From assembly GCF_001280205.1 (NCBI RefSeq), contig NZ_CP012573.1, forward strand, positions 1,178,001 to 1,242,000: a stretch of 64,000 nt of DNA. The letters run 5' to 3'. Positions 18,860 to 30,653 of the stretch are shown in pieces. Made by a program: the position numbers and the translations under genes. Each line of letters starts with the position of its first letter. Positions within the stretch are counted from its first letter, which is position 1. This DNA is from Clavibacter capsici (GTDB taxonomy: Bacteria > Actinomycetota > Actinomycetes > Actinomycetales > Microbacteriaceae). The notes beneath the pieces were generated by a model. That model did no database searches. It was not told where the DNA came from and saw only the letters and a program-made list of their open reading frames with translations.

Positions 18860-20047
18860 TCAGGCGACGGTGAGCCGGTACCCGCGCTTGATGACGGTCT
18901 GGATGATGCCGCCGTCGGGCAGCGACCGCCGCAGCCGCGAGATGGCGACGTCGACCGCGTGGTCGTCGAGCACCTCCGGCGTGGCGCGGGCGAGGACCCG
19001 GCGGGGCACGGTCGCGCCCTCGGCCGACACGAGCGCCCGGAACAGCGCGAGCGGGACGGGGCTGAGGGTGAGGCGCTCGCCGTCGATAACCACGAGGCGG
19101 CCGCGGAGCTCGACGGTGCCGTGCTGCGTGGCGACGCGCGCGACCCCGGACTCCTCCAGGTGCGCGCACACGAGCCGGATCAGAGCGCCCATGCGGAAGC
19201 GGTCGGGCGTGATCGGGAGGATCCCCGCCTCCACGAGCGGCGCCGCGGTCACCGGGCCGACGGCCGCCGCGACCACCATCGTGCGCAGCGCCTCCTGCAG
19301 GTCCTCGAGCCGGCCGGCCGCGTCCGCCGTGGTGAACAGGGCCTCGACGGCGGGCGCGCTCGTGAAGGTGACCGCGTCGATCCCGCCGGTGCACACCGCC
19401 TCGACGAGTCGCAGCACCCGCGCCGAGTCCTCGTGCACCGTCCAGCGGTACGGCGCGACCGTGAGCACGCGGGCGCCGGCGGCCTCCAGGCGGGCGAGCT
19501 GCACCGGATCCGTGAAGCCGTGCAGCTGCACCGCCACCGTCGCCCCGTCGACGTCGCCCCGGAGCACCAGGTCGACGAGCGACGTGGTGGTCTCGCGCTC
19601 GCTCATGCCGTGGTCGTCGAGGGAGGCGGCGCGGATGGCGCCGCGCGCCTTGGGGCCGCGGACCAGGATCCGCGCCTCGGCGAGGACCTCGGTCAGCTCG
19701 TCGCCGATGCCGGCGGCATCGGCCGCCTCGAACCAGCGGCGGATGCCGTAGGAGGTGGTCGCGAGCAGGATCCCGGGACGGGCCCGGATGATCGCCCGGG
19801 TCTCGGCCTCGAGCGCGGAGTCGTCGCTCACGCCGGTCATGCGGATCGTGGGGGCGTGCATCACGTCGGCGCCGCGGCGCTCGAACGCGGCGATGAGGTC
19901 CTCGGAGCGCCGGTCGGAGGTGACGGCGATGCGGAAGCCCTCGAGCTGGTCGGGGCGGAAGCCCGGTTCGGCGCCCGGGTCGGCCGCGGCGGCCGCAGCC
20001 GCGGCGGATCCGGCGGCAGGAGCGGGCAGGGCGTCGGATCCGGTCAT
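18860..20047 (-). CDS. nnaR: NnaR-like regulator: HemD-type domain plus winged-helix DNA-binding domain
   Basis: A 395-residue two-domain protein. Residues about 30-280 form a uroporphyrinogen-III-synthase (HemD) fold (FRIAVTSDRRSEDLIAAFERRGADV, AVTFTSAPAVEAL); residues about 300-395 are an OmpR-type winged helix ending SRLRRSLPDGGIIQTVIKRGYRL. In Streptomyces and mycobacteria this architecture is NnaR, a co-activator with GlnR of nitrate/nitrite assimilation genes, and the neighbours here are just those. I chose ATG 20047 because GAGGGAG lies eight bases upstream; a GTG at 20071, overlapping the cobA stop as GTGA, is equally in frame. Whether it keeps HemD activity cannot be seen. Confidence 0.85.
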   Translation of the reverse strand: MTGSDALPAPAAGSAAAAAAAADPGAEPGFRPDQLEGFRIAVTSDRRSEDLIAAFERRGADVMHAPTIRMTGVSDDSALEAETRAIIRARPGILLATTSYGIRRWFEAADAAGIGDELTEVLAEARILVRGPKARGAIRAASLDDHGMSERETTTSLVDLVLRGDVDGATVAVQLHGFTDPVQLARLEAAGARVLTVAPYRWTVHEDSARVLRLVEAVCTGGIDAVTFTSAPAVEALFTTADAAGRLEDLQEALRTMVVAAAVGPVTAAPLVEAGILPITPDRFRMGALIRLVCAHLEESGVARVATQHGTVELRGRLVVIDGERLTLSPVPLALFRALVSAEGATVPRRVLARATPEVLDDHAVDVAISRLRRSLPDGGIIQTVIKRGYRLTVA

Positions 20048-20067
20048 GGCGGCCACTCCCTCGGCGG

Positions 20068-21132
20068 TCACGGCGTCGCCCGTGCCCGGCGCTCATCCTC
20101 CCATGGCGCGTGTCCCGCGGCCGCGGCCTCCTCGGCCCAGCCGGGGACCCGCACCACCTCGCCCACGACGATCACCGCGGGCGAGCGCGGGGCGACCGTG
20201 CCGAGGATCCCGGCGACGCCCCCGACGGTGGTGATCGTGGTGCGCTGGTCGATGGCGTAGCCGCGCTCGACGATCGCGAGCGGCATGTCGACGCGCATGC
20301 CGTGGCGCTGGAGGCCCGCCGCGAGGTGGGGGAGCGTGTTGACGCCCATGAGCACGACGAGCGTGCCGCCGAGCCCCACGAGGTGCCCGAGCTCCTCCTC
20401 GGAGAAGGGCACGTGGCCGGAGACGACCGTGAACGCGCGGCTCACCTCCCGGTGGGTGACGGGGATCCCGGCGGCGGCGGGCACCGCGACCGCGCTCGTG
20501 ACGCCCGGCACGACGGTCACGGGCACGCCCGCGGCGCGGCACGCGATGACCTCCTCGCCGCCGCGCCCGAAGACGAACGGGTCGCCGCCCTTGAGGCGGA
20601 CGACCCGGAGGCCGCGGGACGCGTGCTCCACGAGCAGCTCCTCGATCCGGCGCTGCGGCACCGCGTGGTGGCCGGGGGTCTTGCCGACGTCGACGAGCTC
20701 CGCGCCGGGGGCGAAGGCGGCCACGTCGTCGGTGGGGCCGAGGCGGTCGTGCAGCACGACGTCGGCCTCGGCGAGGGCGGCGCGCGCGGCGACGGTCATG
20801 AGGCCCGGATCCCCCGGGCCGCCGCCCACGAGGGTCACGTGCCCGAGCGGCGTCGGCGCGGTGCCCTCCCGCACCTGGAACCAGACGCGCTCGGCCCGGC
20901 AGGCCTCGGCGACGGCGGCGCGGCGGACCGGATCGCCCTCCACCCAGAGCACGAGGTCGGGCAGCGGCCGGCCGTCGAGGGCCGCGGCGTCGAGCGCGGC
21001 GCCCGCGGCGTGGTCGGGCACGAGCTCCACGTCGGCGCCGTCCGCGGCGAGGGCCGCGGTGATCCGGCGGGTGGCGGCCGGACCACCCACCACGACGACG
21101 CGGCGGCCCTGGACATCGAGGGGGATCGACAC
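20068..21132 (-). CDS. cobA: Uroporphyrinogen-III C-methyltransferase with truncated N-terminal Rossmann segment
   Basis: A 354-residue protein. Residues about 97-345 are a full SUMT domain (VTLVGGGPGDPGLMTVAARAAL, DVVLHDRLG, GGDPFVFGRGGEE, VPGVTSA, LMGV), which methylates uroporphyrinogen III twice to precorrin-2, the siroheme precursor. Residues 1-95 resemble the start of a CysG-type precorrin-2 dehydrogenase (RRVVVVGGPAATRRITAAL) but are about half the normal length and lack the dimerisation part. GTG 21132 is the start. Three bases separate it from the nirB stop, so it is co-transcribed with nirB; NirB needs siroheme. Confidence 0.93.
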   Translation of the reverse strand: MSIPLDVQGRRVVVVGGPAATRRITAALAADGADVELVPDHAAGAALDAAALDGRPLPDLVLWVEGDPVRRAAVAEACRAERVWFQVREGTAPTPLGHVTLVGGGPGDPGLMTVAARAALAEADVVLHDRLGPTDDVAAFAPGAELVDVGKTPGHHAVPQRRIEELLVEHASRGLRVVRLKGGDPFVFGRGGEEVIACRAAGVPVTVVPGVTSAVAVPAAAGIPVTHREVSRAFTVVSGHVPFSEEELGHLVGLGGTLVVLMGVNTLPHLAAGLQRHGMRVDMPLAIVERGYAIDQRTTITTVGGVAGILGTVAPRSPAVIVVGEVVRVPGWAEEAAAAGHAPWEDERRARATP

Positions 21133-21135
21133 GGC

Positions 21136-23790
21136 TCACACCTTCCGGACGGGGATGGACGGTCCCGACAGCATGACGGATCCGTCGCGCTCCTCCGGGA
21201 AGGCGGGCCGCCGCTGGCCGCGCTCCTCGACGCGGGCGAGCGACGGGTCGGGGGTGGTCGGCGCGTTGACGAACGAGCGGAAGCGGCGCAGCCGGTCGGG
21301 GTCCGCGAGCGTCGCCGCCCACTCGTCCTCGTAGCCGTCGACCTGCAGCGCCATCGCCTGCTCGAGCTCCGCGGCGATGCCGAGCGCGTCCTCCACGACC
21401 ACCCGGTGCACGTGCTCCAGGCCGCCCTCGAGCTCCTCCTGCCAGCGGGCCGTGCGCTGCAGCCGCTCGGCCGTGCGCACGTAGTACATGAGGTACCGGT
21501 CGATGTAGCGGATGAGGGTCTCGTCGTCGAGGTCCTTGGCGAGCAGCTGCCCGTGGGCGGGCGTGAAGCCGCCGTTGCCGCCGACGTAGAGGTTCCAGCC
21601 GGTCTCGGTCGCTATCACGCCGATGTCCTTGGCGCGCGCCTCCGCGCACTCGCGCGCGCAGCCGGAGACGCCCATCTTGAACTTGTGCGGCGATCGCACC
21701 CCGCGGTAGCGCAGCTCCAGGTGGACGGCCATGGCGACGGCGTCCTGCACGCCGTAGCGGCACCACGTGGATCCGACGCACGACTTCACGTTGCGGAGCG
21801 CCTTGCCGTACGCCTGGCCGGACTCGAAGCCGGCGTCGACGAGGATCCGCCAGATCTCGGGCAGCTGCTCCAGCCGGGCGCCGAACATGTCGATGCGCTG
21901 CCCGCCGGTGATCTTCGTGTAGAGGTCGTACCGCTCCGCCACCTCCGCGATGACCTTGAGCTTCGCGGGCGTGATCTCGCCGCCGGGGATGCGCGGGACG
22001 ACCGAGTAGGTGCCGTCCTTCTGCATGTTGGCGAGCGCGCGGTCGTTGGTGTCCTGCAGCGGTCCCTGGCCGGCGTCGAGGATGTAGCCCTTCGTCTGGG
22101 TGGCGAGCACGGACGCCACCACGGGCTTGCAGACGTCGCAGCCGAGGCCGGAGCCCAGGCGCTCGAGGACCTGCGCGGCGGAGGTGAGCCCGAGGATACG
22201 CACGGTCTCGAACAGCTCGCTGCGGCTCATGCCGAAGTGCTCGCAGAGGGCGCGCGACACCTCGACGCCGGCGGCCTCGAGCTCGGTGTCGAGGATCTTC
22301 TTCACGAGCGGCACGCACGACCCGCACTGGGTACCGGCGCGGCTGCACGCCTTGAGCTCGCCGAGGTCGGTGCAGCCGGGGGCGCCGTCGGATCCGCGGA
22401 TCGCGTGGCGGACGTCGCCCGCGCTCACGTCGTTGCAGGAGCAGACCTGCACGTCGTCGGGGAGGTCGGTCGCGGCGGGCGGCTCGGCGCCGGCGGCCGA
22501 GAGGTAGGCGCCGGGCTCGGATCCCAGCTCGCGGCCGAGCATCGGACGGAGCGCGCTGTACGGGGCCGCGTCGCCGACGAAGACGCCGCCGAGGAGGGTC
22601 CTGGCGTCGTCGCTCATCACGATCTTCTGGTACAGCCCGCGGGCCGGATCCGCGTAGACGACCTCGAGCGCGCCCTCCGCGCGGCCCATCGCGTCGCCGA
22701 AGGACGCCACCTCGACGCCCGCGAGCTTGAGCTTCGTGGCGTCGTCGATCCCGGGGAAGACGGCCTCGCCGCCCGTGATCCGGTCGGCCACGGTCTCCGC
22801 CATGGCGTTCGCGGGAGCGACGAGGCCCACGCACACGCCGTCGACCGCCGCGACCTCGCCGATCGCCCAGACGTGCGGGGCCGAGGTGCGGCACGCCTCG
22901 TCGATCGCGACGCCGCCGCGCGGGCCGAGCTCGAGCCCGGCGTCGCGCGCCAGCTCGTCGCGCGGCGTGATCCCGATGGAGAACACGACGACGTCGGCGG
23001 AGATCGTGCGGCCGTCGGTGAGCTCCACGCCGGTGACGCGGCCGGTCGGCGTCGTGAGGATCCGGGTGGGCCGGACCCCCAGGTGCAGCTCGATGCCGTG
23101 CCCGCGGATGATCCGGCCGAGCGCCTGCCCGGCGCCCTCGTCGAGCTGGGACGACATGAGCCAGCGCCCCGAGTGCACGACCGCCGAGCGCGAGCCCAGC
23201 GCGTGCACGCCGCCCGCGGCCTCGAGCCCGAGGAGCCCGCCGCCGACCGTGACCACGTTCGCGGGCCGCCCGTTCCGCTCGCGGAGGCGCTCGATCTCGG
23301 CCACGAGGTCGGCGACGTCGGCGAGCGTCCGGTACACGCACCCCGCCGCGGCGCCCTCGATGGGCGGCACGGTCGCGGAGGACCCCGTCGCGAGCACGAG
23401 CTCGTCGTAGGGGAGAACCGAACCGTCGTCGAGCGCCACCGTGCGCGCCGCCGGGTCGATGCGGGTCGCGAGACGGCCGGGCCGGCAGTCGAGCGCGACG
23501 TGGTCCCAGAACGCGGCCTCGCCGAGCGTCAGGTCGACCTCGCCGGCGAGGCGCTTCGAGAGCTGCACGCGGTCGTACGGGAGGTGCGGCTCGTCGCCGA
23601 CCACGGTGATCCGGAGGTTGGGCGACGACGCGTCCGCGCGGGCCGCGAGCGACTCGGCGAGCCGGTGGGCCGCGGGGCCGCCGCCCACGACGACGACGCG
23701 GCGGACCCCGTCGGCGCCCGTGGTCGGGGACGCGGACGCGCCCGTCGGGACGGCGTGCGGGTCGGGCGGCGTGGCAGCTGGTGCGCTCAT
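21136..23790 (-). CDS. nirB: Nitrite reductase [NAD(P)H] large subunit NirB
   Basis: An 884-residue assimilatory nitrite reductase large subunit, reducing nitrite to ammonium in the cytoplasm. In order: FAD-binding (VVVVGGGPAAHRLAE), NAD-binding (VVTVGGGLLGLEAAGG), a BFD-type [2Fe-2S] region (CSCNDVSAGDV and CSRAGTQCGSC), a second conserved Cys pair (GCDVCKP), then the siroheme/[4Fe-4S] domain with CVGSTWC and GCARECA supplying the four cysteines. Length is normal. ATG 23790 has GAGGAGG upstream. It leads an operon with cobA and nnaR and is divergent from nirD, an unusual split of nirBD. Confidence 0.97.
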   Translation of the reverse strand: MSAPAATPPDPHAVPTGASASPTTGADGVRRVVVVGGGPAAHRLAESLAARADASSPNLRITVVGDEPHLPYDRVQLSKRLAGEVDLTLGEAAFWDHVALDCRPGRLATRIDPAARTVALDDGSVLPYDELVLATGSSATVPPIEGAAAGCVYRTLADVADLVAEIERLRERNGRPANVVTVGGGLLGLEAAGGVHALGSRSAVVHSGRWLMSSQLDEGAGQALGRIIRGHGIELHLGVRPTRILTTPTGRVTGVELTDGRTISADVVVFSIGITPRDELARDAGLELGPRGGVAIDEACRTSAPHVWAIGEVAAVDGVCVGLVAPANAMAETVADRITGGEAVFPGIDDATKLKLAGVEVASFGDAMGRAEGALEVVYADPARGLYQKIVMSDDARTLLGGVFVGDAAPYSALRPMLGRELGSEPGAYLSAAGAEPPAATDLPDDVQVCSCNDVSAGDVRHAIRGSDGAPGCTDLGELKACSRAGTQCGSCVPLVKKILDTELEAAGVEVSRALCEHFGMSRSELFETVRILGLTSAAQVLERLGSGLGCDVCKPVVASVLATQTKGYILDAGQGPLQDTNDRALANMQKDGTYSVVPRIPGGEITPAKLKVIAEVAERYDLYTKITGGQRIDMFGARLEQLPEIWRILVDAGFESGQAYGKALRNVKSCVGSTWCRYGVQDAVAMAVHLELRYRGVRSPHKFKMGVSGCARECAEARAKDIGVIATETGWNLYVGGNGGFTPAHGQLLAKDLDDETLIRYIDRYLMYYVRTAERLQRTARWQEELEGGLEHVHRVVVEDALGIAAELEQAMALQVDGYEDEWAATLADPDRLRRFRSFVNAPTTPDPSLARVEERGQRRPAFPEERDGSVMLSGPSIPVRKV

Positions 23791-23856
23791 GACGGACCTC
23801 CTCCTCGGGTGTCCTCTCACGCTAGGGAGGGCCCGTTTCGGGGCCGTTGCCCCCGT

Positions 23857-24039: not shown

Positions 24040-25116
24040 ATGACCATGACGGAGGTCGCCGCGTCCGAGGCCGGCACGACGTCGACGGGCCCCTGGCTCG
24101 CCGTCTGCCGGCTCGACCAGCTGGAGCCGCTCTGGGGCGAGGCCGCGCTCGTCGGCGGCGAGCAGGTCGCGCTCCTCCGCCTGCCGGACGGGAGCGTGCG
24201 GGCCGTCGACCACGCGGATCCCGCGACCGGCGCCTTCGTGATGGCCCGCGGCATCGTCGGATCCCGCGGCGGCCGCACCACGATCGCCTCGCCGCTGCAC
24301 AAGGACGTCTTCGACCTCGACTCGGGGGAGTGCCTGACGACGCCCGCCCTGCGGCTGCCCGTGTGGCGGAGCCGCGTGCGCGACGGCGTCGTGGAGGTGG
24401 CCCGCTCGGCGGCGCTCGTCGCGGCGTCGCACGGCACCTCGGATCCGGCCGGCCGCCGCGCGGTGACCGCGCTCGTGCAGGCCGTGCGGGAGGCCCGGCC
24501 CGACCTCCGCGTCGTGGACGCGCACGTCGACGTGCAGCAGCCCGACGTGCCCGCCGCCATGGACGCGCTCGACGACCCGTCACGCGCGGTCGTCGTGGTG
24601 CCGCTGCTCCTCAGCGCGGGCTACCACGTGCACGTCGACCTCGCCGAGGCCGCCGCCGACGCCGCGCCGCGCGAGGTGCGCGTGACGGGCGCGCTCGGGC
24701 CGGATCCGCGCCTCGCGACCGTGCTCGCCCGCCGCCTCCGCGAGGCCGGCCTCCGGGACGGCGACCGCGTCGTGCTGGCGGCCGCCGGATCCAGCGACGC
24801 GGGCGCCGTCGCCGACTGCCACGCCGTGGGCGGGATGCTCGCGGCGGAGCTCGGGCGCGAGGTCGTCACGTCGTTCATCTCGGCCGCGCGACCGCGCGTG
24901 CCCGCGGCCGTCCGCGCCGAGCGGGAGGCCCACCCGGGATCCCGCGTCGTCGTGGCCACCTACCTCCTCGCCCCCGGGTACTTCGCCACCCTCGCCGAGC
25001 GCGCGGGAGGGGATGCCACGAGCGCCCCGCTCCTCGTCGACGGCGAGGCGCCGCCCGCGGAGCTCGTCGACATCGTCGTCGAGCTGCACGAGTCGGCGGC
25101 CGTGCCCGTGCGCTGA
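24040..25116 (+). CDS. Fusion of nitrite reductase small subunit (NirD) and sirohydrochlorin chelatase (CbiX/SirB-like)
   Basis: A 358-residue fusion. Residues about 15-115 are a NirD-type Rieske-fold domain (LCxL-like start, ASPLHKDVFDLDSGECLTT, PVWRSRVRDGVVEV) without cluster ligands, as is normal for NirD. From about residue 124 (ALVAASHGTSDPAGRRAV) it continues in frame as a CbiX/SirB chelatase: His in the SHGT loop, VPLLLSAGYHVHVDL with the second metal-binding histidines, and a second SirB-like half near LAAAGSSDAGA. So one protein carries the NirB partner and the enzyme inserting iron into sirohydrochlorin to make NirB's siroheme. AGGAG precedes ATG 24040. No frameshift marks the junction. 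Confidence 0.9.
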   Translation: MTMTEVAASEAGTTSTGPWLAVCRLDQLEPLWGEAALVGGEQVALLRLPDGSVRAVDHADPATGAFVMARGIVGSRGGRTTIASPLHKDVFDLDSGECLTTPALRLPVWRSRVRDGVVEVARSAALVAASHGTSDPAGRRAVTALVQAVREARPDLRVVDAHVDVQQPDVPAAMDALDDPSRAVVVVPLLLSAGYHVHVDLAEAAADAAPREVRVTGALGPDPRLATVLARRLREAGLRDGDRVVLAAAGSSDAGAVADCHAVGGMLAAELGREVVTSFISAARPRVPAAVRAEREAHPGSRVVVATYLLAPGYFATLAERAGGDATSAPLLVDGEAPPAELVDIVVELHESAAVPVR

Positions 25117-25238: not shown

Positions 25239-26723
25239 ATGACCGAACTCCTCCCGCCCGCGACCGAGCGCACCGCGCCCGCTCCCGCGCAGCCCGTCGC
25301 GCCGCCTGCCGCCGCGCCCGCCGCCCGCACCGTCGACGCGCACGGCGCCTCCGCCCCCGGGCTCACCTTCCGCGATGGCGCCGTCATCGACGGCTGGGAC
25401 CCCGAGGACGCGACGCAGTGGGAGGGCGGCGGCTCCCGCATCGCCGCCCGCAACCTGCGCTGGTCGATCCTCGCCGAGTTCCTCGGGTTCGTCGTCTGGC
25501 AGCTGTGGTCGATCGTCGTGGTCCAGCTGCCGGCCGCGGGCTTCGACCTCTCCACGGGCCAGGTGTTCTGGCTCATCTCGATCCCGAGCCTCGTCGGCGC
25601 GACCCTCCGCTTCCCCTACACGTTCATGGTGCCGCGCTTCGGCGGCCGCAACTGGACGGTGATCTCGGCGCTCCTGCTGCTCATCCCCACGATCGCGCTC
25701 GCGGTGTGCGTCGGGAACCCGGACACCCCGTTCGGCGTGCTGCTCCTCGTGGCGGCGCTCGCGGGGTTCGGCGGCGGGAACTTCGCGAGCTCCATGTCGA
25801 ACATCACCTACTTCTACCCGCAGAGCCGGAAGGGCTGGGCGCTCGGCCTCAACGCCGCGGGCGGCAACCTCGGCGCGTCGGTGGCGCAGCTCGTCGTGCC
25901 GCTCGTGATCACGGTGGGCGCGGCGGCCACGCTCGACCTGCCGCTCGCCGGCTGGATCTGGGTGCCGCTCATCCTCGTCGCCGCGTTCGGCGCGTGGCGG
26001 CGCATGGACAACCTGTCGCACGCGAAGGCCGACCTCACGGCGTCGCTCGCGGCGCTGAAGGAGCCGCACCTGTGGATCCTCGCGTTCCTCTACGTGGGCA
26101 CCTTCGGCTCGTTCATCGGGTTCGCCGGCGTCTTCCCGAAGCTCATCTCCGACGAGTTCCCCGAGCTGTCGACCTTCGCGGTCGGCTCGGCGACGCTGTC
26201 GCTCGCGTTCCTCGGGTCGCTCATGGGATCCGTCGCCCGGCCGATCGGCGGCCGCCTCGCCGACCGGCACGGCGGCGCCGCGGTCACCATGGGCGCGTTC
26301 GTGGTGATGGGCCTCGCGGTGGTCGCGGTGATCATCACCCTCCCGCTCGGCAGCTTCCCGCTCTTCCTCGCGCTCCTCCTCGTGCTCTTCACGGCGAGCG
26401 GCATGGGCAACGGCGCGACGTACCGCATGATCCCCGCGGTGTTCGCGCTCCGCTCGGGCACCGCGCGCGCGGGCCGCTCGTCGGGCGACGTGGGCACGCA
26501 GCGGAAGACGGCGGCGGCGCTCGGCCTGATCTCCGGTCTCGGCGCGTACGGCGGCTTCATCATCCCGCAGGCGCTCAGCCTCTCGAAGACGGAGACGGGC
26601 GGCTACACGACCGGCCTCGGCGGGTTCGTCGTCGCCTACGCGCTGATGCTCGCGGTGACCGGGCTCGTCTACCTGCGGGCGGGCGGGATCCGCCGCGGGA
26701 CCGCCGCCGGCGCGCGCGTCTGA
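25239..26723 (+). CDS. narK: Nitrate/nitrite transporter NarK (MFS)
   Basis: A 494-residue major-facilitator membrane protein with about twelve hydrophobic helices. After an unusual 60-residue Pro/Ala-rich cytoplasmic head it has the nitrate-porter signatures: [19 protein letters not shown] in helix 5 and [15 protein letters not shown] in helix 11, with conserved Arg residues in FRFPYT-like and R-rich loops. It probably imports nitrate for NasA or exchanges nitrate and nitrite. The stop overlaps the nasA ATG, so the two are coupled. Confidence 0.94.
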
Positions 26724-28915
26724 TGCCGGCGGTCGCCGAGGCGGGACCCGGCGCGGACGGCGGCACGGCCGCGGGCACGCGCGGGCACTGCCCGTACTGC
26801 GCGCTGCAGTGCGCGATGACGCTGACGCCGACGGGGGCGGGCGCCGCCGCCGGGGCCGCGTCGCCCGCCGGGCCCGTGCTGGAGGTGGCCGGCCGGGACT
26901 TCCCCACGAACCGCGGCGGGCTCTGCCGCAAGGGCTGGACGAGCGCGGAGGTGCTCACGGCGGCGGGCCGGCTCACGCACCCGCTCGTGCGGGACGCGTC
27001 CGGCGAGCTCGTCCGCGCCACGTGGGACGCGGCGCTCGACCTGGTCGCCGACAGCCTCCGCGACAGTCGCGCGCGGTTCGGCGTGGACTCCGTGGGCGTG
27101 TTCGGCGGCGGCGGGCTCACCAACGAGAAGGCGTACCAGCTCGGGAAGTTCGCGCGGATCGCGCTCGGCACCTCCAGGATCGACTACAACGGCCGGTTCT
27201 GCATGTCGTCGGCCGCCGCGGCCGGCAACCGCGCGTTCGGCGTCGACCGCGGCCTGCCGTTCCCCGTCGCCGACCTCGACGGCGCGTCGACGATCCTGCT
27301 GCTCGGCTCCAACGTCGCCGCGACCATGCCGCCGTTCATCGGCCACCTCGGCGGGGCGCGGGCCGCGGGCGGGCTCGTGGTGGTGGATCCGCGCCGCTCG
27401 GCCACGGCGCACCTCGCGGACGACGGGCAGGGGATCCACCTGCAGCCCGCGCCCGGGACCGACCTCGTGCTGCTGCTCGGCCTCATCCACGTCGTGCTCG
27501 CGGAGGGGCTCGCCGACGACGCGTACGTGGCCGCGCGCACCACGGGCCTCGACGCCGTGCGCCGGAGCGCCAACGCGTGGTGGCCGGAGCGCGTGCAGCA
27601 GGTGACGGGCGTCCCGGTCGCGGAGCTGCGCCGGGTGGCGCGGCGGCTCGCGGACGGACGCGGGACCTTCATCCTCACCGGCCGCGGCGTCGAGCAGCAC
27701 GTCGACGGCACGGACACCGCGACGGCCGCCATCGACCTCGCGCTCCTGCTGGGGCTCCCGGGCCGGCCCGGATCCGGCTACGGCACCCTCACCGGCCAGG
27801 GCAACGGGCAGGGCGGGCGCGAGCACGGGCAGAAGTGCGACCAGCTGCCCGGCTACCGTCGGATCACCGACCCGGCCGCCCGCGCGCACGTCGCCGCGGT
27901 GTGGGGCGTCGACCCGGACACCATCCCCGGGCCCGGCGTGCCCGCGGTCGAGCTGCTCGGCGAGCTGGGGGAGCCCGGCGGGATCCGCTGCCTCCTCGTG
28001 CACGGATCCAACGTCGTCGTCTCCGCGCCCGACGTCACCGCCGTCCGCCGCGGCCTCGCGCGCCTCGACCTGCTCGTGGTGTGCGACCTCGTGCTCTCCG
28101 AGACCGCCGCGCTCGCCGACGTGGTCCTGCCCGTCACGCAGTGGGCCGAGGAGGAGGGCACCACGACCTCGCTCGAGGGCCGCGTGATCCGCCGCCGCCG
28201 CGCGATCGACCCGCCGCCGGAGGTGCGGAGCGAGCTCGAGGTGCTGGCGGAGCTCGCCCGGCGGCTCGGCGCGCCCTCCACCTGGCCGACCGACCCCGCC
28301 GTCGTGTTCGACGAGCTCGGGCGGGCGTCCGCGGGCGGGATCGCCGACTACTCGGGGCTCAGCCACGCGCTGCTCGACGACGACCAGGTCGCGGGCTTCT
28401 GGCCGTACCCGGCCGGATCCACGGGCACGCCGCGCCTCTTCGCCGACCGCTTCGCGCACCCCGACGGACGCGCGCGGCTCGTGGCCGTGACGCCGCGGGA
28501 CGTGACCGCGGCCGATCCGGCGCCCGTCGGCGGCGCGCTCACCCTCGTCACCGGGCGGCTGCTCGAGCACTACCAGTCGGGCGCGCAGACGCGGCGGGTG
28601 CCCGAGCTGCAGGGCGCGCAGCCCGTGGCCCGGCTGCAGATCCACCCGGCCGCGGCCGTCCGGCTCGGCATCGTGCACGGCGCGCCCGTCGCGGTCCGGA
28701 ACGCGCGCGGCGAGGTGCGGGCGGTCGCGGAGGTGACCGCGGGGATCCGGCACGACACGGTATTCCTGCCCTTCCACTACGCGGGATCCGAGTGCGCGAA
28801 CCTGCTGACGGCCTCCTCGGTGGATCCCGTCTCGGCCATGCCCGAGTTCAAGCGCACGGCCGTGACGGTGCGTGCGCTCGCGACGCGGACGGACGCGGAG
28901 GCGGAGCGTGGCTGA
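26723..28915 (+). CDS. nasA: Assimilatory nitrate reductase catalytic subunit (molybdopterin, [4Fe-4S])
   Basis: A 730-residue molybdopterin oxidoreductase. The N-terminal cluster motif is HCPYCALQC plus GLCRKGW, giving the four cysteines for [4Fe-4S]. Bis-MGD contacts are seen in [27 protein letters not shown] (Mo-ligand Cys) and [24 protein letters not shown], a signature of assimilatory NasA/NarB enzymes; the C-terminal barrel has [13 protein letters not shown]. It reduces nitrate to nitrite in the cytoplasm and has no Tat signal. It starts inside the narK stop codon and overlaps the next gene by eight bases, forming one operon. Confidence 0.95.
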
Positions 28916-30653
28916 GGCGGGGGACGGCGTGATCCGCGTGCTGGTCGTCGGCCACGGACCCGTCGCCGCGCGCCTCGTCGAGGGCCTCCTGCCGGCGGTG
29001 CGGGCGGGGATCCTCGCGGTCGTCGTCGTGGGCGCGGAGGACGGCGACCCGTACAACCGCGTGCTCGTCGCCGAGCACGCGGTGGGCCGCGCCGACCGAG
29101 AGCGCCTCGAGGTGGCCGACACGGCCGCGGCGGAGGCGGCCGGCGTGCGGGTGCTGCGGCACGACGCGGTGGTCACGATCGACCGCGGGCGCCGGGTCGC
29201 GACCCTGCACTCCGGCGAGGCGCTCGCGTACGACCGGCTCGTGCTGGCCACCGGCGCCCGCGCGCACGTGCCGCCCATGGACGGGCTCGAGGCGTCCCGG
29301 CACGCGCGCGGCGACGCCCCGCGGGATCCCGACGCGCTCGACCACGGGCGGCGTCCCCTCCCCGCGGGCGTCGTCGCGCTCCGCGACCTGCGGGACGCGC
29401 GCACGGTGCTCGCGGCCGTCCGGGCCGGACGGCGCATCGTCGTGCTCGGCGCGGGCGTGCTCGGCATGGAGCTGGCGCTCGCCGCGGCGGAGCAGGGGGC
29501 GGACGTCGTCGCCGTGCACCACGGCGACGTCCCCATGGCGCGCAACCTCGACCGCGGCGGAGGCCGCACCCTCAGCCACGCGGCCGATGCGGCGGGCGTC
29601 GCGATGGCCGCCCACGCCCGGGCCGAGGGCGTGCTGCTGCACGACCGCGGGACGGATGACGAGCGCTTCCAGGCGCTGCTGCTCGCGGACGGCGGGCGGA
29701 TCGACGGCGACCTCCTCGTGCTGTCCTGCGGCGTCACGGCGCGCGACGAGCTGGCATCCGCCGCGGGCCTCGCGGTCGGGCGCGGCGTGCTCGTGGACGC
29801 CGGGCTCCGCAGCTGGACCGACCCGGCCGTCTTCGCGATCGGGGACTGCGCGCACGTCGCGGCGCCGGGATCCACGCGGGCCGACGGCCAGGTGCCGGGC
29901 GGGCCCTCCGGCCTCATCGGACCGGGCTGGCGGCAGGCCGACGCGCTCGCGGGGCTGCTCGCGGCGGAGGCGGAGGCCCGGCACGGGCGGGCGGCGGGAT
30001 CCGCGGGCGGGCGCCCGCAGGCGACGCCCGACGCGCCGGCCGGCCCCGGCCCCGGCCCCGGCGGCGACGCCGGGCGTCCGCCCGTCGTGATGCTCAAGGC
30101 TGAGGGGGTCGACGTGGTCGCGGGCGGCGACGTGACCGCCGAGCCGTGGGACGACCCGCCCCCGCGGCGCCGCCGCCCCGGTCGTGCGCACGCCGCGTCC
30201 TGCGCCGCGGACGAGCCCGCGCCGGGCGCCGTGCCCGCCCCGCGCGAGGTGGCCGTGTGGACCGACCCGGCGCGCGGCGCGTACGTCAAGACCGTGACGC
30301 GCGACGGGATCCTCGTGGGCTTCGTCAGCGTCGGCATGCCGCGTGCGGGCGCCGAGCTCACGCTCCTGTTCGAGCGCCGCGGCGAGCTCCCGGCTGACCG
30401 CTCGGTGCTCCTCCGCCTCGACGCGGCCGACGCCGGGTCCCTGCCCACGGGGGATCCACTCGCGCCCGACGCGACCGTCTGCTGGTGCAACGGGGTCACC
30501 GCCGGCACGATCGCCGAGGCCGCCGCGGACGGCGCCGGCACGGTCGAGGAGATCGGCGCGTGCACGCGGGCGGGCACGGGGTGCGGCACGTGCCGGGGGC
30601 GGATCCAGGAGGTGCTCGCCTCCGCGGGCGGCCGGGCGGCGGCGCTGCTCTAG
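28908..30653 (+). CDS. FAD/NAD-dependent oxidoreductase with BFD [2Fe-2S] domain, nitrate reductase electron-transfer partner (NasB-like)
   Basis: A 581-residue flavoprotein. Two dinucleotide folds are visible ([19 protein letters not shown] and [20 protein letters not shown]), an FAD site ending [10 protein letters not shown], a Pro/Gly/Ala-rich insertion (about 360-430) and a C-terminal bacterioferredoxin-like cluster domain (CWCNGVTAG and [11 protein letters not shown]). It resembles the front half of NirB, and NasB proteins beside nasA pass electrons from NAD(P)H to nitrate reductase. The start is GTG 28908 (GGAGGCGGAGC upstream), overlapping nasA by eight bases. Confidence 0.88.

What the first reader, a model, noticed from the sequence alone, without database searches (positions are those of the whole stretch)
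24040..25116. NirD fused in frame to a sirohydrochlorin ferrochelatase
One continuous frame joins the nitrite-reductase small-subunit domain (about residues 15-115) to a CbiX/SirB-type chelatase (about 124-358). NirB needs siroheme; the fusion would place the last siroheme step on the NirB partner, perhaps for direct cofactor delivery. In the families I know, NirD is a single-domain protein and the chelatase is separate or fused to other siroheme enzymes. The junction has no frameshift or linker anomaly.
Basis: partly seen in the sequence, partly recalled or inferred. Interest (0 to 1): 0.7.

Follow-up and report, generated by a model that had tools for sequence, protein, structure and literature searches.

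The report
Nitrite-reductase subunit fused to siroheme chelatase
One protein joins the small subunit of nitrite reductase to the kind of enzyme that finishes nitrite reductase's iron cofactor, siroheme; the fusion is real and shared by a group of related bacteria, and it suggests that the cofactor may be made on the enzyme that needs it.

Summary

Functional hint: in this genome NirB is the only NIR_SIR (siroheme-enzyme) protein found and the fusion the only CbiX protein. The same holds in 10 of 13 fused genomes (G040 with one further borderline CbiX match); the other three have a second siroheme enzyme and a second, unfused chelatase. Five same-genus genomes without the fusion have neither.

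So it is very probably NirB's dedicated siroheme ferrochelatase, carried on its partner subunit. Direct siroheme hand-over is untested. Nine searches of the held papers showed no description. New variant of a known kind.

The parts
24040..25116 (+). nirD-sirB fusion gene, 358 aa plus stop
   Evidence: fused frame in 22 distinct loci
24094..24399 (+). NirD (Rieske_2) domain, residues 19-120
24403..24411 (+). junction, residues 122-124, between last NirD strand and first chelatase strand
   Evidence: model secondary structure; SPLHK-to-SHG distance 46 residues in 21 of 22 fused loci, 47 in one
24412..25113 (+). SirB/CbiX-type chelatase, residues 125-358, two CbiX repeats
24430..24432 (+). His131, aligned with a His near the N-terminus of SirB
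   Evidence: invariant in 22 of 22 fused and 34 of 34 separate loci; alignment; its catalytic role is recalled
24529..24531 (+). Asp164, aligned with a Glu of B. subtilis SirB
   Evidence: alignment; invariant in the same loci; role of the Glu recalled
24625..24627 (+). His196, aligned with the second His of SirB
   Evidence: invariant in the same loci; alignment; role recalled
21136..23820 (-). nirB, large subunit, transcribed away from nirD-sirB
   Evidence: NCBIfam TIGR02374 906 bits; only NIR_SIR match in the genome
20068..21132 (-). cobA-type uroporphyrinogen-III methyltransferase with a weak N-terminal NAD_binding_7 domain
18860..20071 (-). HemD-like domain plus Trans_reg_C, NnaR-type regulator
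   Evidence: Pfam; architecture as described for NnaR in PMC11162112 (passages)
25239..26723 (+). NarK-type nitrate/nitrite transporter
   Evidence: MFS_1; NarK-family hits, below their cut-offs
26723..28915 (+). assimilatory nitrate reductase catalytic subunit (NasC-like)
   Evidence: best NCBIfam NF047855, 667 bits, below its cut-off of 1100; Molybdopterin domains
28872..30653 (+). NasB-like flavoprotein with BFD [2Fe-2S] domain; the label NasB is mine
   Evidence: domains

Best explanation
The gene encodes a bifunctional protein. The N-terminal half is the NirD small subunit, which binds NirB (recalled from NirBD biology). The C-terminal half is a class II sirohydrochlorin ferrochelatase of the SirB kind that puts Fe2+ into sirohydrochlorin and so makes siroheme. 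[quoted passage not shown] Shown: the fusion and its conservation, intact catalytic-type residues, purifying selection on both halves, and, in this genome, one siroheme-enzyme protein and one CbiX-type chelatase found. Inferred: iron as the metal, binding of the fused NirD to NirB, and local or direct loading of NirB with new siroheme. It most likely arose once, from an overlapping nirD/sirB gene pair already in the nitrite-assimilation locus.
For: Domains; Pfam finds both domains in 20 of 20 aligned fused members (20 of the 22 distinct loci were aligned). Fused frame in 22 distinct loci against 34 separate. Fused rows on one side of a branch on the joint tree (100/98) and the NirD tree (99/91). 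Residues: H131, D164 and H196 invariant, 22 of 22. dN/dS 0.04-0.26 in six pairs for NirD and both chelatase repeats. Own genome: one NIR_SIR match (NirB), CbiX only in the fusion. 13 fused genomes: 10 with NirB as the only NIR_SIR protein and the fusion as the only full CbiX protein, 3 with a second siroheme enzyme and a second chelatase; 5 same-genus genomes without the fusion have neither domain. Locus order nnaR-cobA-nirB / nirD-sirB-narK-nasC-nasB found in 14 of 18 fused loci of 12 kb or more. No internal start codon shared by all fused genes: 2 of 22 have none in the 25 codons before SHG.
Against: No biochemistry and no complex structure. In genomes with separate genes one chelatase can serve two siroheme enzymes (4 of 9 genomes with two siroheme enzymes have a single CbiX gene), so attachment is not needed for siroheme to reach NirB. 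In the quick CbiX-only tree the fused rows need 4 changes (L069 falls with Leifsonia separate chelatases, L013 sits on a long branch), although one clade is not rejected (p-AU 0.75). In two fused loci (L063, L071) no nirB was found in the 6 kb upstream. G040 has one further CbiX match of 21.7 bits, 22.3 with its neighbours, against a cut-off of 22. The lack of indels at the junction is not special: 145 of 278 windows of that length in the alignment are as constant. In-frame GTG codons and, in some loci, SD-like strings lie near the junction, so a minor internal start is not excluded in single species.
Confidence: 0.72

Rival explanations
1. The fusion is a neutral outcome of losing the stop and the frame change between two overlapping genes. 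Both halves work as they would apart; the only effect is equal amounts, with no local delivery of siroheme.
For: In 37 of 41 separate loci (duplicates included) nirD and the chelatase gene overlap by 4 nt (the script takes the start nearest the stop, which favours this figure), so they were already next to each other and probably translationally coupled. A single separate chelatase is all that one search found in many unfused relatives (26 of 30 with one siroheme enzyme).
Against: The fusion is kept over long divergence (52-97% identity to the window), no separate row falls inside the fused group, and no start codon is shared at the junction. These facts do not exclude neutrality.
Confidence: 0.38
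2. The chelatase half is no longer catalytic and serves NirD or NirB as a structural or siroheme-sensing domain.
For: Asp164 stands where B. subtilis SirB has Glu.
Against: H131, D164 and H196 are invariant in fused and separate forms alike, dN/dS is low, and one search found no other CbiX-type chelatase in this genome.
Confidence: 0.05
3. The chelatase inserts cobalt or nickel and belongs to another pathway; its place on NirD is incidental.
For: The CfbA nickelochelatase model matches part of the domain, far below its cut-off (41.2 of 120 bits); SirB-type enzymes can also take cobalt (PMC7018833, passages).
Against: SirB is the best solved relative by sequence and fold. CbiX is absent from the 5 same-genus genomes that lack NIR_SIR proteins. 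The gene lies in a nitrite-assimilation locus. Cobalamin genes were not searched for.
Confidence: 0.05
4. Sequencing or assembly artefact that joined two genes.
For: None found.
Against: The same fused frame stands in 22 distinct loci from different assemblies.
Confidence: 0.005

Closest known systems
NirD, small subunit of NADH-dependent nitrite reductase NirBD (PDB 4aiv, 3c0d, 2jo6, 2jza). Not the other NirD, a siroheme decarboxylase subunit of heme d1 and heme synthesis (named in PMC7242693 and PMC10991733, passages)
   Different: The four solved NirD chains are 113-130 aa long; here a chelatase follows after three residues.
SirB, sirohydrochlorin ferrochelatase of Bacillus subtilis (PDB 5zt7, 6jv6)
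   Different: 19-21% identity; Asp in place of the SirB Glu; N-terminus attached to NirD.
narK3-nirBD-nnaR-sirB operon of Mycobacterium abscessus (PMC11162112, passages); a similar gene set with HemD and NirE/SirB is named for Saccharopolyspora erythraea (PMC2667423, passages)
   Same: Same functions in one nitrite-assimilation locus; in M. abscessus with an NnaR-type HemD/DNA-binding regulator and a sirB.
   Different: There nirD and sirB are named as separate genes, in M. abscessus with nnaR between them; here they are one gene, and nirB lies on the other strand.
CysG, siroheme synthase (PMC7018833, passages)
   Same: Another gene fusion that includes the siroheme chelatase step.
   Different: CysG fuses steps of the synthesis to each other with a class III chelatase; here a class II chelatase is fused to a subunit of the enzyme that uses siroheme.

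Membership tests
NirD (TIGR02378, Rieske_2) | score over the curated cut-off of the NirD domain model | tested here: met
   TIGR02378 86.7 bits, cut-off 74.65. The second NirD model, PRK09511, is below its cut-off (64.8 of 135).
NirD (TIGR02378, Rieske_2) | NirB large subunit encoded in the same locus | tested here: met
   nirB 21136-23820, divergent, next gene
NirD (TIGR02378, Rieske_2) | single-domain protein | tested here: not met
   chelatase fused in frame; I treat this as a variant architecture, since the domain model is passed
NirD (TIGR02378, Rieske_2) | binds NirB and is needed for its activity | not testable with these tools
   needs protein work
SirB / CbiX class II chelatase | CbiX domain over cut-off, two repeats | tested here: met
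   PF01903 90.9 bits, cut-off 22, two stretches
SirB / CbiX class II chelatase | two metal-site histidines (feature recalled) | tested here: met
   H131 and H196, 22 of 22 fused loci; aligned with SirB
SirB / CbiX class II chelatase | acidic residue at the SirB Glu position (feature recalled) | tested here: met
   Asp164 instead of Glu, invariant
SirB / CbiX class II chelatase | inserts Fe2+ into sirohydrochlorin | not testable with these tools
   iron inferred from gene context and from the co-occurrence counts
CysG siroheme synthase | dehydrogenase/chelatase (CysG-B) module in the same polypeptide | tested here: not met
   no NAD_binding_7 or TP_methylase match in the fusion up to E 1

The most novel reading that the evidence does not exclude
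The fused chelatase is a built-in loading device: NirD docks it on apo-NirB and nascent siroheme passes straight from the chelatase site to the NirB site without going free. As far as I know this would be the first siroheme enzyme to carry its own cofactor-finishing enzyme.
Probability: 0.25. Interest if true: 0.75.

Novelty: new variant of a known kind. Interest (0 to 1): 0.5.

Why it matters
As far as I know, how siroheme gets from its chelatase to nitrite and sulfite reductases is not settled. A natural fusion of the last synthetic enzyme to a subunit of the consuming enzyme, in genomes where it is the only chelatase found for the only siroheme enzyme found, gives a direct system in which to test local delivery: compare the fusion with the natural two-gene versions from close relatives. 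It also gives an annotation hint: the only NCBIfam model whose cut-off this protein passes is the NirD one, so a protein named only NirD can hide what may be the organism's sole siroheme chelatase.

Tried and rejected
Fusion outside the family: the best candidate, G302 (another family of the order, query 7-352, no stop), was fetched and is not a fusion; only the chelatase half has homology. Of the other spanning rows that I fetched, L140 and L142 gave no NirD match, L143 gave NirD without a chelatase match, and L141 has a weak NirD match far from its chelatase. Several further spanning rows, some with a stop inside, were not opened (for example G072, G858, G1289 and G1142), and the lists are cut after about 150 rows, so a rare or divergent fusion in the order (347 genomes), class (345) or phylum (396) sample is not excluded. 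Plasmid records: 113 with a match, none covering 80% of the query.

Independent translation of the chelatase: no start codon is shared by all 22 fused genes at the junction. Rejected as a general explanation, not excluded in single species.

Special conservation of the junction length: looked striking (46 residues in 21 of 22), but the control shows that about half of all equal-length windows are as constant. Dropped as evidence of constraint.

'One chelatase per siroheme enzyme' as a rule of the whole family: fails in the unfused set (26 of 30 one-enzyme genomes have one CbiX gene and 4 have two; of 9 two-enzyme genomes 4 have one, 4 two and 1 three). Kept only as a description of the 13 fused genomes. 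The 41 unfused genomes were picked by eye from the matches; by the coordinates there three of them (G126, G239, G240) do not have the two genes adjacent, and the nirD of G078 is not among the listed rows.

Multiple origins of the fusion: the quick CbiX-only tree (83 rows; I chose 24 loci without nirD for it) suggested it for L069 and L013; the one-clade test on 80 of these rows (L080, L134 and L138 left out) did not reject a single origin (with L013 left out p-AU 0.51; the part without L069 did not finish).

Promoter and terminator scan: nothing found. My first classification script called L003, L004, L062 and L074 'adjacent' because the match ran past the gene's stop; one search replaced it.

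Literature: nine searches listed no paper that I recognised as describing NirD fused to a chelatase. Passages only were read of PMC7242693, PMC4531530, PMC11162112, PMC7018833, PMC11237513, PMC3403918, PMC2667423, PMC3004389 and PMC10991733; none of the passages describes this fusion. All other papers were seen as listings. Subscription papers and domain databases such as InterPro were not available, so 'not in print' is not shown.

Full report

Surroundings. On the minus strand lie an NnaR-type HemD/DNA-binding protein (18860-20071), a CobA-type methyltransferase with a weak NAD-binding N-terminus (20068-21132) and NirB (21136-23820). On the plus strand, after the fusion, lie NarK, a NasC-like molybdopterin enzyme and a NasB-like flavoprotein. 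By tblastn with the window's proteins this whole order is found in 14 of 18 fused loci of 12 kb or more, and in the separate-gene locus L079; the exceptions are L063 and L071 (no nnaR, cobA or nirB found in the upstream flank), L139 (no narK, nasC or nasB found) and L144 (no cobA found). In Mycobacterium abscessus the same functions form a narK3-nirBD-nnaR-sirB operon with a separate sirB (PMC11162112, passages). The nearest named record is Clavibacter (L058, 97%), so I take the window's genus to be Clavibacter.

Distribution. In a sample of 299 genomes of the family, 99 had a match and 13 a fused one, in 9 of the 85 genera (loci L001-L013 checked). Among the 80 named loci kept (the best of 137) the first 17 (L058-L074) are fused: Clavibacter, Rathayibacter, Subtercola, Naasia, Herbiconiux, Glaciihabitans and two Microbacteriaceae without a genus name; one more (L080) starts inside the chelatase and cannot be classed. 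In all, 74 loci hold both parts side by side: 33 fused and 41 separate with duplicates, 22 and 34 without. Of the 41 separate ones 37 overlap by 4 nt. The fusion is patchy: 2 of the 7 genomes listed from the window's genus have it, and genera g8, g29 and g73 hold fused and unfused genomes. In the samples of order (347), class (345) and phylum (396) I found no fusion outside the family (G302 rejected); the limits of that statement are told under Tried and rejected.

Origin. On a joint tree of 56 rows the 22 fused rows are one side of a branch with support 100/98, one change; with NirD alone (57 rows) 99/91. With the chelatase alone the quick tree scatters L069 and L013, but holding all 22 together is not rejected (p-AU 0.75). 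Since relatives outside the family in this set (Arthrobacter, Micropruina) have separate genes, the two-gene state is the likelier ancestor; the tree itself is unrooted.

Is the fused chelatase alive? His131, Asp164 (aligned with a SirB Glu) and His196 are invariant in 22 of 22 fused and 34 of 34 separate loci. dN/dS is 0.04-0.26 in NirD and in both chelatase repeats over six pairs of fused genes. That these positions are catalytic is recalled from work on SirB and CbiX, not from a call.

Whom does it serve? The window's genome (3.24 Mb, 99.99% complete) has one NIR_SIR match, in NirB, and no CbiX match outside the fusion. Of 13 fused genomes, 10 have NirB as the only NIR_SIR protein and the fusion as the only full CbiX protein; one of these, G040, has a further partial match of 21.7 bits (22.3 with its neighbours, cut-off 22). 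G122 has two NirB-type matches and a second, unfused nirD-chelatase pair; G028 and G234 have NirB plus a frame with two NIR_SIR domains (sulfite-reductase type by that layout, recalled) and a second CbiX. Five same-genus genomes without the fusion have neither domain. In 41 unfused genomes with matches to the query the link is looser: of 30 with one siroheme enzyme 26 have one CbiX gene and 4 have two; of 9 with two enzymes, 4 have one CbiX gene, 4 two and 1 three; G279 has three enzymes and two CbiX genes; G078 has one of each (counted by hand). So chelatases can be shared in the family, but every fused genome examined that has a second siroheme enzyme also has a second chelatase (3 of 3, too few for a test).

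Mechanism. Most likely the protein is both NirD and the siroheme ferrochelatase, held on the NirB partner. Co-production and co-location follow from the fusion if NirD still binds NirB; preferential or direct hand-over of siroheme is an inference without direct support. The neutral rival (a lost stop between overlapping genes, no gain) is serious. The three-residue junction leaves little freedom, but its constant length is no more than that of much of the rest of the protein.

Pathway gaps. The dehydrogenase that makes sirohydrochlorin was not pinned down: NAD_binding_7 matches four places in the genome, one of them the N-terminus of CobA. Cobalamin genes were not searched for.

Novelty. Parts, locus and functions are known; the NirD-chelatase architecture was not seen in nine searches of the held papers or in the passages read (listed under Tried and rejected). 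CysG shows that siroheme-synthesis enzymes fuse with each other (PMC7018833, passages); a fusion to a subunit of the consuming enzyme is a new variant.

Noticed in passing
21136-23820 (-) and 24040-25116 (+): nirB and nirD are on opposite strands with about 220 bp between them, unlike the usual nirBD operon; every listed locus where both were found shows this except L085.
   Followed up: partly
[quoted passage not shown]
   Followed up: partly
20068-21132 (-): CobA carries a weak NAD_binding_7 N-terminus (26.6 bits, cut-off 22.1), perhaps a reduced precorrin-2 dehydrogenase; Pfam matched no dimerisation domain there.
   Followed up: partly
L149 and L152 (G122): This genome has two NirB-type matches: one near the fused nirD-chelatase, one near a separate nirD and chelatase, a natural comparison.
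   Followed up: partly
L139 (G234): Fused protein with a divergent chelatase half (48% against 60% for NirD) on a long branch; a swapped or fast-evolving chelatase is possible.
   Followed up: partly
L059, end of the fusion gene: In the Clavibacter CASJ009 record the frame changes near the chelatase C-terminus; sequencing error or real damage, not resolved.
   Followed up: no
L063 and L071: Fused gene with narK-nasC-nasB downstream but no nirB, cobA or nnaR found in the 6 kb upstream; where their NirB lies was not looked for.
   Followed up: no
genus g1 sample: Only 2 of the 7 genomes listed from the window's genus match the fusion; the other five also lack any NIR_SIR or CbiX match, so nitrite assimilation by this route is patchy in the genus.
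   Followed up: partly
L080: A contig binned as Planctomycetota holds a chelatase that falls among the fused ones in the quick tree, next to narK; probably a binning error.
   Followed up: no
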